DNA of 64,000 nt from Sulfurisphaera ohwakuensis. GTDB taxonomy: Archaea; Thermoproteota; Thermoprotei_A; Sulfolobales; Sulfolobaceae. The stretch covers positions 310,001-374,000 of the forward strand of contig NZ_CP045484.1 in NCBI RefSeq assembly GCF_009729055.1, read 5' to 3'. Positions 3,065 through 17,288 of the stretch are shown here, piece by piece. The first letter of the stretch is position 1; each line of letters starts with the position of its first letter. The translations under genes and the position numbers were made by a program. Below the pieces are notes generated by a model. It did not search any database and had not been told where the DNA came from. It saw nothing but the letters and a program-made list of their open reading frames with translations.

Positions 3065-3773
3065 TTTTTGTCTCACCTAATTTTTCTCTCAAAAACTTTC
3101 TTATTTTTTCCGTTAGTCCTTTTATATGAGATTCTTTTTCTATAATCTGAATAGCTTCAACTAAAGCTTCTTCAATCATCTTAGTAGCACAATTAGCTAG
3201 TATTCTTCCATTTTGAGCAACAAGAATTTCACAGCCTGTTTCGCTAGTTAATGTGTCAAGCATGCTTCTGTTTTTCCCGATTACTCTCGGGACTTTTACT
3301 GGAGGTATATCAATTACGATTCCGCTAGATACTCTTCCTAAACCTTTCCCTTTTATAGATAAAATAGGATTTATCGTTCTATCATAGGTTTCTATTTTAG
3401 CAATTACGTAATCTCCCAAATTAAGGTATCTACGCAAGTCCTCTCCGGGGCTAACTGGCCTACCTAAGAATGAAGAAGCTGGTAAGTATGCAGAATAAGG
3501 TGATTTTATATCCAGAACCCATCCATAAATTTCAACATCTTCTATTAATCCAATAACTGTATCACCAACTTTCGGGATATATCTATGTCCTTCTAATGGA
3601 ACTATCTCAAATAAATTTTCCTTAACTTCTATTAAACCTGTTATGGACGAATAATATTTATTTCCTATCTTATAATAATATGGTGACCATGGTATTTGAA
3701 AGTCTCCTTCGGCAATTAAATCTCCAGGAGTGACTATGCTTCTATCCTCAAAATATATCTTACTATTAGACAT
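3030..3773 (-). CDS. rrp4: Exosome cap subunit Rrp4 (S1/KH RNA-binding)
   Basis: A 247-residue protein with the three parts of Rrp4: an N-terminal domain ([16 protein letters not shown]), an S1 domain (about 68-140, [22 protein letters not shown]) and a KH domain (about 155-220) with the variant GxxG loop IGKNRSMLD. Rrp4 trimers sit on top of the Rrp41/Rrp42 ring and feed RNA into the pore. It lies 7 nt after SBDS and overlaps the rrp41 start. The tail after the KH domain is charged and probably flexible. Confidence 0.96.
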
Positions 3774-14597: not shown

Positions 14598-14681
14598 GCG
14601 GGGGTGCCCGAGCTGGTCAAAGGGGGCGGACTTAAGATCCGCTGGCGAAGGCCTGCGTGGGTTCAAGTCCCACCCCCCGCA
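14598..14681 (+). tRNA. tRNA-Leu(UAA), no intron
   Basis: The acceptor stem GCGGGGG pairs with CCCCCGC and is followed by discriminator A; CCA is not encoded. The anticodon arm GCGGA-CTTAAGA-TCCGC gives anticodon UAA. A long variable arm and a GGTTCAAGTCC T-arm support leucine and a functional cloverleaf. AATATAAGG around 14559-14568 is a possible TATA element. The last 32 nt are identical to the other two tRNA-Leu genes of the window. Confidence 0.96.
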
Positions 14682-14866
14682 CGCTACTTTTACGTAAAAT
14701 TCTATAATTTTGTCTAAAGATCCTGCTATTGATCGTTTCTTTTACCTTCATTTGATGATATAATATTTTCTCTTATCTTCCCTTATTTGATATTACTCTG
14801 TTAAATCATTCTTCTTTTTATGTATTATGAAAAGATTTTTAGAATGTGAGTTAAAACTAGATATTA

Positions 14867-15130
14867 ATGGCTCAAGAACTACAAGAATTGGAGGAAATAG
14901 CAAGTCAAAGTGCAGATTATGAATATGGTATTTATTATTATATAGAGAAAGATGAGCAAGTTAATGATGATACGATGGAGCAGTTTACTTTGGCTTTGCG
15001 TGGTAGTTTAAGGGCACCGCAAGAATATGAGAAAGATGCTAGGTGTCAAGTTCTTGGGAATAGGAGGGCTTTTAAGGATAATATGTTTTGGCTTTATCCC
15101 GCTATGATAGTACCAGAGAGAATGGCATAG
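14867..15130 (+). CDS. Orphan protein, 5' part (87 residues), ends at an in-frame amber codon
   Basis: An acidic 87-residue protein of unknown family (MAQELQELEEIASQSADYEY at the start). It ends in TAG at 15128-15130. The next 15 nt are sense codons in the same frame and lead directly into the 441-codon frame that opens at the GTG at 15146, so both parts form one continuous frame of 534 codons broken by a single amber codon. Either a nonsense mutation split an orphan gene or two proteins are made. TTTTTATG near 14815 may be the promoter. No motif is recognised. Confidence 0.6.
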   Translation: MAQELQELEEIASQSADYEYGIYYYIEKDEQVNDDTMEQFTLALRGSLRAPQEYEKDARCQVLGNRRAFKDNMFWLYPAMIVPERMA

Positions 15131-15145
15131 GATACTGGATCCTTA

Positions 15146-16471
15146 GTGAACATTGTAAGGCAAGGTATGGTGATAAGGTCTAATGAAGAAGGGATATTGT
15201 GGTTCATTGGAGGGTGTGCACCAAGGTATTGGAGGTCTGGAAAGTACTATATATCTCAAGGAGGAACACAATTAGGCTATTTAGGCTCAAATATAAAAGT
15301 TGGAGGAGGAACTAGGATAAAAGCTGCAGCATTAGAGAAGTACGCAGCATCACTAAACAAGAACTACATGCAAATTTGCATAATCCCAGTCTTATTAAAA
15401 CCTAACCTTCAATGGAAAGACCCAACATACTACACCCTTACAAGTAATACTAACTATCAAGAATCAATAAACCAAATAGTACTCCCATCAGCAATACCAC
15501 AACTACTAACATACCAACCCAAATTAAGCTATCTAGCAATTGACAAGATTAATAATTTTAAATATACCAGTGAAGGATACACATACCTAAGTAAATCTAT
15601 ACCTAATTATCTAATAGATTTCAGTAGCCAATTCCCCTATCCTTATCCTGGACTTTACACAGCCGGTCTGGTAAGTCCAAACTATCCTAGTCAATTATTT
15701 CTAGGACTTATGAGAGTTGTAGTTATTAATTTCCCAAAAATTTCACCATTTTACTCAAAAGCAAATTTATTATATCCTAGAAGTTATGATACTCTCGCTT
15801 CGCATATTTTCATGTTGAATGATATGTCTATTGGTTCTGTTCTTTATCTTGGTAAGTATAGTCCTAGTAATTCTGGTATGTGTTCGGATTATGGTGTTTT
15901 GGGGTTGGTTAGTGGGGTTATGAATTTTGTTGTTAATGTGGGTGGTGTGGTGACTTCTGATAGGGGTTTGTTATCGCAACCTCCTCTAGGTGATTTTAAG
16001 TGGGGGTTTTATATTTTGGCTGTTATGAAGGTTCCTAGTGCGTCTAATATTGATGATTTTATTGATGGTTTGGGGCAGAGGGAGGCTGTGAATATTGTTT
16101 TGGGTAGTGTTAGGAGTGCTAGGAGGGCTGTTGGTAGTCTTGTTGCTTCTGGTGTTCTTGCTGGTATAGCTTTTGCTGCGGTAATGGCTGTTGAGGATTG
16201 GGAGAGTGAGGAGCAAATAGTTAGTGATTCTAAGAAGTATGTTGAGAAGTTGAATAGGGTGTATAATGAGGTTTTAAACTTTATAAATGGTTGTATAGAG
16301 TCTCAACCAAATTTAACAAGGAATGAGAAAGTGATGTATGTGCAACAGGCGCAAGAGTACTTGAATGGGTTAATATATGATGTTGATGCTGAGGAAAGTG
16401 AGGATGATATAATCTCATTCCTAGAGGATGAGTTATCATTATATTTGGAGAATCAAGGAGTATCTTGTTAA
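15146..16471 (+). CDS. Orphan protein, 3' part (441 residues), one predicted membrane helix
   Basis: I do not recognise this family. The protein is rich in Y, S, P and N in its middle (for example SSQFPYPYPGLYTAGLVSPN), then has a hydrophobic segment (VGSLVASGVLAGIAFAAVM, about residues 331-349) followed by an acidic, helical tail. This could suit a surface or virion-type protein, but that is only a guess. It is in frame with the preceding 87-codon ORF. Base composition changes sharply inside the gene, C/A-rich near 15420 and G/T-rich near 15900, unlike any neighbour. It is probably acquired accessory DNA. Confidence 0.6.
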   Translation: MNIVRQGMVIRSNEEGILWFIGGCAPRYWRSGKYYISQGGTQLGYLGSNIKVGGGTRIKAAALEKYAASLNKNYMQICIIPVLLKPNLQWKDPTYYTLTSNTNYQESINQIVLPSAIPQLLTYQPKLSYLAIDKINNFKYTSEGYTYLSKSIPNYLIDFSSQFPYPYPGLYTAGLVSPNYPSQLFLGLMRVVVINFPKISPFYSKANLLYPRSYDTLASHIFMLNDMSIGSVLYLGKYSPSNSGMCSDYGVLGLVSGVMNFVVNVGGVVTSDRGLLSQPPLGDFKWGFYILAVMKVPSASNIDDFIDGLGQREAVNIVLGSVRSARRAVGSLVASGVLAGIAFAAVMAVEDWESEEQIVSDSKKYVEKLNRVYNEVLNFINGCIESQPNLTRNEKVMYVQQAQEYLNGLIYDVDAEESEDDIISFLEDELSLYLENQGVSC

Positions 16472-16500: not shown

Positions 16501-17150
16501 TCTACATATGATGCCTCCTACGGTTAAAACTCGGGTATGTTGGGGCATGGTATGTGGTGCCTTCTCTTATCTATTTTCATCAGATTTATGCTAGTATAAA
16601 TCCTTTATGTATATGTCATGTGGGAGAATGTTGAATTGAAACATAGTGTCGTCACTAGGGTATTTATATTTCTAGATTCACATTAGGATGTATAAAACTT
16701 TTTCTTAGTATCTTCTCTTTATAGAGATTTTCATTAATTAATAAATTTATACCATAATGGCGACACTATCAATTGAAAGAAGATGTTAGTGTGTTATCAT
16801 TCAACTATTTCTACGAATTTTTTGGCACATAGTAATGTGTCAATTCAATATTTATGCTCCTTATAAAGAAAGGCGATTTAATAAATTTATATTCGAATTT
16901 TAACGCTAGGAATATGTAAGATTTCTTTAATATGCAAAAATCAAATTTGGGAAACAGATAAAGTTTAGTAAAAATCGATGGATTTTTAGGTCTAGCTTTG
17001 ATTCTCCAGATTTTATTCTTTATTTAGTACATGAAATCCCATTTTTTATAAAGATAAGCTAAGAGATATTTTATAATAATTCCATTTTTCCTTTTGTTCT
17101 TTACAAAATTAATGGACGATTTGCATGTTTACTATTAAATTAAAAGGAGA
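16472..17150. other. 679-nt non-coding stretch between the orphan gene and tRNA-Leu
   Basis: I find no supportable gene. The stretch holds a T-rich terminator at its left edge, a short GGCA...TGCC hairpin near 16545-16562, a 9-bp inverted pair (ATAGTGTCG at 16643-16651 and CGACACTAT at 16761-16769), and TAATAAATTTATA occurring twice (about 16739 and 16879). The composition is more AT-rich than the coding DNA around it. Confidence 0.45.
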
Positions 17151-17251
17151 TGCGGGGGGTGGGACTTGAACCCACGCAGGCCTATGCCATCGGGGTTCTT
17201 ACCATTAAGGTCCTAAGCCCGACCCCTTTGACCTTGCTCGGGCACCCCCGC
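17151..17251 (-). tRNA. tRNA-Leu(UAG) with a 16-nt intron
   Basis: Read on the minus strand, the acceptor stem GCGGGGG/CCCCCGC and the 32-nt 3' end equal those of the other tRNA-Leu genes. The anticodon stem TCGGG/CCCGA encloses CTTAGG, then 16 extra nt (17196-17211 on the plus strand), then C38. Removing these gives loop CTTAGGC with anticodon UAG and the canonical archaeal intron position 37/38. The intron contains ACC...GGT, which could form the helix of the splicing bulge-helix-bulge. Confidence 0.93.
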
Positions 17252-17288
17252 ACAAAATAAAAAACTAATGTTAAGAATAAAAAGCTTA

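What the first reader, a model, noticed from the sequence alone, without database searches (positions are those of the whole stretch)
14867..16471. One orphan gene of 534 codons split by a single in-frame amber codon
The 87-codon and 441-codon frames are in the same register. Between TAG (15128-15130) and the GTG at 15146 there are only sense codons (GAT ACT GGA TCC TTA), so removing one TAG joins them. Explanations: a recent nonsense mutation in an accessory gene, programmed readthrough, or a true two-protein operon with internal GTG initiation. Pyrrolysine is not known in this order, so decoding by that route is unlikely. Both halves keep open frames, arguing that the event is recent or the split is tolerated.
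Basis: partly seen in the sequence, partly recalled or inferred. Interest (0 to 1): 0.68.

Follow-up and report, generated by a model that had tools for sequence, protein, structure and literature searches.

The report
Freshly broken gene beside a tRNA
A 534-codon gene of unknown function in the hot-acid archaeon Sulfurisphaera ohwakuensis has been cut in two by one recent stop mutation; its close relatives still carry it whole, and it belongs to an undescribed gene family whose copies sit beside tRNA genes far more often than chance and are repeatedly lost.

Summary
In detail: two frames in one register (14867-15130 and 15146-16471, +) are separated by one TAG at 15128-15130. The genome matches Sulfurisphaera ohwakuensis DSM 12421 by length (CP045484; long plus short reads, so a base error is unlikely). 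S. tokodaii holds the same gene at the same place, whole (535 aa, 87-88% identical), with serine where the window has TAG. Serine is invariant there in the four intact full-length members of this subfamily. Outgroup codons point to TCG>TAG, one C-to-A change on the S. ohwakuensis branch. No CUA-anticodon tRNA and no pyrrolysyl-tRNA synthetase above cut-off were found. The downstream GTG is a valine codon also present in S. tokodaii and a second relative, and has no Shine-Dalgarno core. Best explanation: a young nonsense mutation; readthrough and a two-protein operon are unlikely. The gene is not a true orphan. It belongs to a Sulfolobaceae-only family absent from Pfam, NCBIfam, PHROGs, PDB and the phage/plasmid/viral collections searched. 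Members lie within 1.5 kb of a tRNA gene in 17 of 26 cases in four genomes (1.5 expected; TnpB 0/64, PIN 4/90), and orthologues in three sister species are broken by different lesions. The flanking tRNA-Leu carries a relic of a spindle-virus-type integrase.

The parts
14598..14682 (+). tRNA-Leu(TAA) gene, 184 bp upstream of the split gene
   Evidence: ARAGORN; Rfam tRNA 57.7 bits at G000:C1:324598-324681
14655..14789 (-). decayed relic of the N-terminal part of an SSV-type (suicidal) integrase, int(N), running into the tRNA-Leu 3' end
   Evidence: tblastn 56% over 52 residues with in-frame stops, to the S. tokodaii relic; that relic matches PF07935 SSV1_ORF_D-335 at 3e-10, PHROG integrase at 5e-10, and fusellovirus integrases up to 4e-16
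14836..14843 (+). TATA-like TTTTTAGA about 25-30 bp before the ATG, fitting a leaderless transcript (inference)
   Evidence: sequence read directly; not tested
14867..15130 (+). 5' part of the gene: 87 codons, then TAG
   Evidence: matches the N-terminus of the intact S. tokodaii gene, 88%
15128..15130 (+). in-frame TAG where homologues have a serine codon (TCA, TCG, TCA, AGT)
15131..16471 (+). 3' part of the gene: 446 codons, open to TAA; GTG 15146 is a valine codon within it
17149..17252 (-). second tRNA-Leu gene, intron-containing, missed by ARAGORN without introns; the split gene lies alone between the two tRNA genes
   Evidence: ARAGORN with introns; Rfam 46.4 bits at G000:C1:327151-327251

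Best explanation
The region is one accessory gene of 534 codons, transcribed to the right from just before 14867. A single recent base change (TCG serine to TAG) on the S. ohwakuensis branch now ends translation after 87 residues, so the gene is a young pseudogene or a null allele. Shown: the same gene is whole at the same place in S. tokodaii, serine is invariant at that site in the intact homologues, and TAG acts as an ordinary stop without a matching tRNA. Inferred: the 441-codon remainder is untranslated or translated only by weak reinitiation, and its open frame reflects youth, not function. The gene belongs to a fast-evolving, tRNA-adjacent, birth-and-death family in which such losses recur. 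The molecular function of the intact protein is not known. My working guess is an accessory protein of genetic conflict (element-borne, selfish or anti-element) maintained at tRNA integration sites; this rests only on where the genes sit and how often they are lost.
For: S. tokodaii orthologue intact, 535 aa, same place after the same tRNA-Leu(TAA). Serine at the TAG site in all four intact homologues. Polarised with the third species, the codon was TCG and changed at one base on the window branch. Of the 44 tRNAs recognised at the Rfam tRNA hits in the genome, none has anticodon CTA; PylS hits are far below cut-off (27 versus 178 bits). TAG ends 8 of 67 ORFs of at least 120 codons in the window, with in-frame extensions of at most 28 codons. 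No further stop or frameshift in 446 codons: neutral decay over the divergence of the window branch (about 0.09 per synonymous site, derived) would leave about 4 stops and only a 1.5% chance of none. Losses recur: three sister species (94-96% identical DNA) each carry different lesions in their orthologue. The genome matches CP045484 by length, assembled from 362x PacBio and 481x Illumina (PMC7067957).
Against: The downstream frame shows no clear relaxation: polarised changes outside the mosaic middle are 14 N / 6 S on the window branch and 7 N / 8 S on the S. tokodaii branch, a difference too small to call. A gene that lost function very recently and one still read through look the same on this measure. 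Raw reads and a second strain could not be examined.
Confidence: 0.88

Rival explanations
1. Two proteins are now made: an 87-residue peptide and a 441-residue protein started at GTG 15146 by termination-reinitiation or internal initiation.
For: The start candidate is only 15 bases after the stop, and the downstream frame is open and largely conserved. In G155 the N-terminal part of the orthologue is broken by frameshifts while the C-terminal frame stays open.
Against: The GTG is a valine codon, GTG also in S. tokodaii and G090. No GGTGA-type Shine-Dalgarno core; the best match is GATCC three bases before GTG, and it is absent from S. tokodaii, where the codons read GGG TCA. The product would lack the N-terminal part with the near-invariant Cys60 and YPA motif of the family.
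Confidence: 0.07
2. Programmed or natural-suppressor readthrough of the TAG gives the 534-residue protein.
For: The downstream frame is open and shows no clear relaxation.
Against: No CUA-anticodon tRNA recognised and no PylS above cut-off. No homologue has a stop at this codon. In Archaea termination-codon readthrough is demonstrated only for selenocysteine and pyrrolysine (PMC8211752).
Confidence: 0.03
3. Sequencing or assembly error in the reference.
For: A single base difference; no second strain was available here.
Against: 362x PacBio plus 481x Illumina correction (PMC7067957); the error would have to fall on a base whose change makes a stop.
Confidence: 0.02

Closest known systems
Nonsense-mutated young pseudogenes of accessory gene families in archaea (general kind)
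   Same: One disabling substitution, frame otherwise intact, intact orthologue in the sister species, fast-evolving paralogous family.
   Different: Nothing essential; the family itself is undescribed in the libraries searched.
SSV-type (suicidal) integrase sites of fuselloviruses and related plasmids at tRNA genes
   Same: The tRNA-Leu beside the gene carries an int(N) relic of that type, in S. tokodaii and, decayed, in the window.
   Different: No int(C) was found near the gene, and no fusellovirus or plasmid in the collections carries the gene. Relics of this kind also lie at many other tRNA genes of this genome, so a link with the family is not shown.
Free-standing homing endonucleases near tRNA genes, such as phage T4/T6 SegB (works-like comparison only; a lead from the literature search)
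   Same: Single genes recurring beside tRNA genes and decaying repeatedly; tract-wise gene conversion between copies.
   Different: No nuclease motif or Pfam match; no evidence of DNA cleavage or homing; members are at many different tRNA genes.
Programmed -1 frameshift gene fucA1 of Saccharolobus solfataricus
   Same: A split gene in the same family of archaea.
   Different: That is frameshifting; here there is an in-frame stop with a serine codon in all intact relatives.

Membership tests
Gene disabled by a single nonsense mutation | Intact orthologue in the closest relative, same place | tested here: met
   S. tokodaii 535 aa, 87-88% identity, after the same tRNA-Leu
Gene disabled by a single nonsense mutation | Sense codon at the stop position in all homologues; one-step change | tested here: met
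   TCA, TCG, TCA, AGT versus TAG; inferred TCG>TAG
Gene disabled by a single nonsense mutation | Relaxed selection after the stop | tested here: inconclusive
   14N/6S versus 7N/8S on the two branches outside the mosaic middle
Pyrrolysine (UAG) decoding | tRNA with CUA anticodon | tested here: not met
   44 tRNAs recognised at the Rfam hits of the genome, none CTA; two weaker Rfam hits gave no clear tRNA
Pyrrolysine (UAG) decoding | PylS | tested here: not met
   best 27.4 bits against cut-off 178
Two-gene operon with internal start | Start codon and Shine-Dalgarno for the second protein, boundary conserved in homologues | tested here: not met
   GTG is a Val codon in intact homologues; no SD core; no homologue split at the same boundary
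SSV-type integrative element | int(N) overlapping the tRNA | tested here: met
SSV-type integrative element | int(C) and attR bounding an element that contains the gene | tested here: not met
   no int(C) near G078:462-466 kb or G000:324-327 kb at E<=0.01
Known protein family (Pfam, NCBIfam, PHROGs, PDB) | Match above curated cut-off or significant E-value | tested here: not met
Free-standing homing endonuclease | Nuclease motif | tested here: not met
   no Pfam nuclease match in any of 21 members
Free-standing homing endonuclease | Homing activity (site-specific cleavage and copying) | not testable with these tools
   needs an experiment or population genomes

The most novel reading that the evidence does not exclude
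The gene is one copy of an undescribed Sulfolobaceae family of single, selfish or anti-element genes that settle beside many different tRNA genes, exchange tracts by gene conversion, and are then lost independently in each descendant, a cycle that works like that of homing genes. The amber codon would be the first step of the loss phase at this site.
Probability: 0.12. Interest if true: 0.68.

Novelty: new member of a known kind. Interest (0 to 1): 0.36.

Why it matters
The split itself is an ordinary nonsense mutation and should be annotated as a pseudogene, not as two proteins or a recoding case. What deserves attention is the family behind it: a widespread, multi-copy, fast-evolving protein family of Sulfolobaceae, absent from Pfam and NCBIfam, strongly concentrated beside tRNA genes and repeatedly inactivated. 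If the tRNA link holds up it points to a targeted way of spreading, or to a function at the sites where viruses and plasmids integrate.

Tried and rejected
Pattern scans for relatives in GTDB contigs and IMG/VR and tblastn in phage and plasmid records, also with two paralogues, found none; GTDB records of near genomes appear to be withheld there, so relatives came from the genome search. Structure prediction of the read-through window protein alone was poor (pLDDT 37; only the C-terminal helices from about residue 452 are confident). No fold search was made on the poor model. ARAGORN's 'tRNA-Pyl(cta)' in G136 (L043:5084-5172) reads as an intron-containing tRNA-Arg(CCT) (my reading of the sequence). 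A transposon reading of the S. tokodaii duplicate pair (1463 bp, 99.9%) was dropped in favour of gene conversion: the last codons outside the tract are still homologous but diverged, and no target duplication was seen. int(N) relics are not clearly commoner at family sites than at other tRNA genes (about a quarter in both, a rough count). Precise empty-site edges against G119 could not be set at 79% identity.

Full report
Observation. Removing the stop gives one frame of 534 codons.

Source. The window is G000:C1:310001-374000 of a single-contig genome of 2,803,915 bases, the length published for Sulfurisphaera ohwakuensis DSM 12421 (CP045484), which was assembled from 362x PacBio and 481x Illumina reads (PMC7067957). 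Relative G078 has 2,694,756 bases, the length of S. tokodaii strain 7 (PMC4307357). Names for the G genomes are inferred from such lengths; calling G146, G131 and G155 Saccharolobus-like is a guess from kinship.

Relatives. S. tokodaii carries the whole gene: 535 codons, 87-88% identical over both halves, at the same place after the same tRNA-Leu(TAA). A species of another genus (G090) has it whole at 64-65%, and G136 of the same genus has two whole copies at 41-46%. At the TAG the homologous codons are TCA, TCG, TCA and AGT, serine in all. With G090 as outgroup, the third base G is ancestral and the window branch changed only C to A.

Selection. Window versus S. tokodaii: dN 0.067, dS 0.186, ratio 0.36 for the whole gene, 0.44 before and 0.35 after the TAG. 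Neighbouring genes have dN of 0.000-0.025, with dS between 0.01 and 0.25, so the protein evolves unusually fast in this neighbourhood. The middle part of the gene (alignment columns 240-400) has dS 0.39 against about 0.1 on either side, a mosaic best explained by recombination with a diverged copy (inference). After the TAG there is no other stop or frameshift. Neutral simulation gives on average 4 stops, and a 1.5% chance of none, for 0.09 substitutions per site, roughly the synonymous length of the window branch derived. So the stop is younger than the species split, or the frame is still under some constraint; polarised counts (14N/6S against 7N/8S outside the middle) cannot decide.

Decoding. 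Rfam and ARAGORN with introns recognise 44 tRNAs, none with anticodon CTA; two weak Rfam hits are unresolved or look like a fragment. PylS is absent at cut-off. TAG closes 8 of 67 ORFs of at least 120 codons in the window, with in-frame extensions of at most 28 codons. Termination-codon readthrough in Archaea is demonstrated only for selenocysteine and pyrrolysine (PMC8211752). The GTG at 15146 is a valine codon, also GTG in S. tokodaii and G090; before it there is no GGTGA core, only GATCC at three bases.

Family. No match at cut-off in Pfam, NCBIfam, PHROGs or PDB. A 21-member profile finds relatives in 16 of 31 genomes of the same taxonomic family, up to 14 hits in one genome, many of them fragments or with stops; the order-wide search gives no convincing member outside it. 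Invariant columns include G115, G116, W122, G323, C339, W445 and the last cysteine. In three sister species (94-96% identical DNA) the orthologue is broken in different ways: one TAA in G146; a lost start codon, a TAA, a TAG and a missing 3' end within the stretch compared in G131; frameshifts in the N-terminal part of G155. S. tokodaii holds two paralogues identical over 1463 bp at 99.9% but diverged outside, a sign of gene conversion.

Place. The gene is alone between two oppositely oriented tRNA-Leu genes. Over four genomes, 17 of 26 members lie within 1.5 kb of a tRNA gene, 1.5 expected for random placement (binomial about 1e-15, which ignores shared ancestry of some loci); controls are TnpB 0 of 64 and PIN domains 4 of 90. 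Over all genomes searched, 40 of 62 placed members are that close, at roughly twenty different tRNA loci by my count. Between tRNA and gene S. tokodaii has an int(N) relic of an SSV-type integrase, and the window a decayed trace of it; such integrases are split on integration into int(N) and int(C) (PMC8371274). No int(C) is nearby, and the family is absent from phage, plasmid and IMG/VR records, so an origin in such elements is possible but not shown.

Verdict. A real, recent single-base nonsense mutation in a member of an undescribed, tRNA-adjacent, fast-turnover gene family. The split itself is ordinary; the family is the part worth following.

Noticed in passing
window 14655-14789 (-); L040:2429-2635 (-); L099:3404-3556 (-): Relic of an SSV-type integrase N-terminus running into tRNA-Leu(TAA): readable in S. 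tokodaii and G119, decayed in the window. Similar relics lie at many other tRNA genes of S. ohwakuensis.
   Followed up: partly
family members; four-genome test: An undescribed Sulfolobaceae protein family is strongly concentrated within 1.5 kb of tRNA genes, while TnpB and PIN genes are not.
   Followed up: partly
L052, L053, L054: The orthologue between tRNA-Leu genes is broken independently in three sister species (different stops, start loss, frameshifts).
   Followed up: yes
L047:4110-5572 and L048:3445-4907: Two S. tokodaii paralogues share 1463 bp at 99.9% including 72 bp upstream of the start, with abrupt ends: gene conversion or recent duplication.
   Followed up: partly
window, middle of the gene (about 15520-16010), against L040: The middle of the split gene has about fourfold higher synonymous divergence from S. 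tokodaii than its ends: a recombination mosaic.
   Followed up: partly
L040:2455-2494 and 3212-3251: In S. tokodaii a 40-bp direct repeat (83%) flanks the extra roughly 760 bp between tRNA-Leu and the gene; the window lacks that segment.
   Followed up: no
L055 (G096:C1:904000-923500): Five closely similar family members in an inverted arrangement over about 16 kb, with no tRNA found nearby.
   Followed up: no
window 15370-15560 and 15790-16270: The coding strand switches from A+C-rich to G+T-rich within one gene.
   Followed up: no
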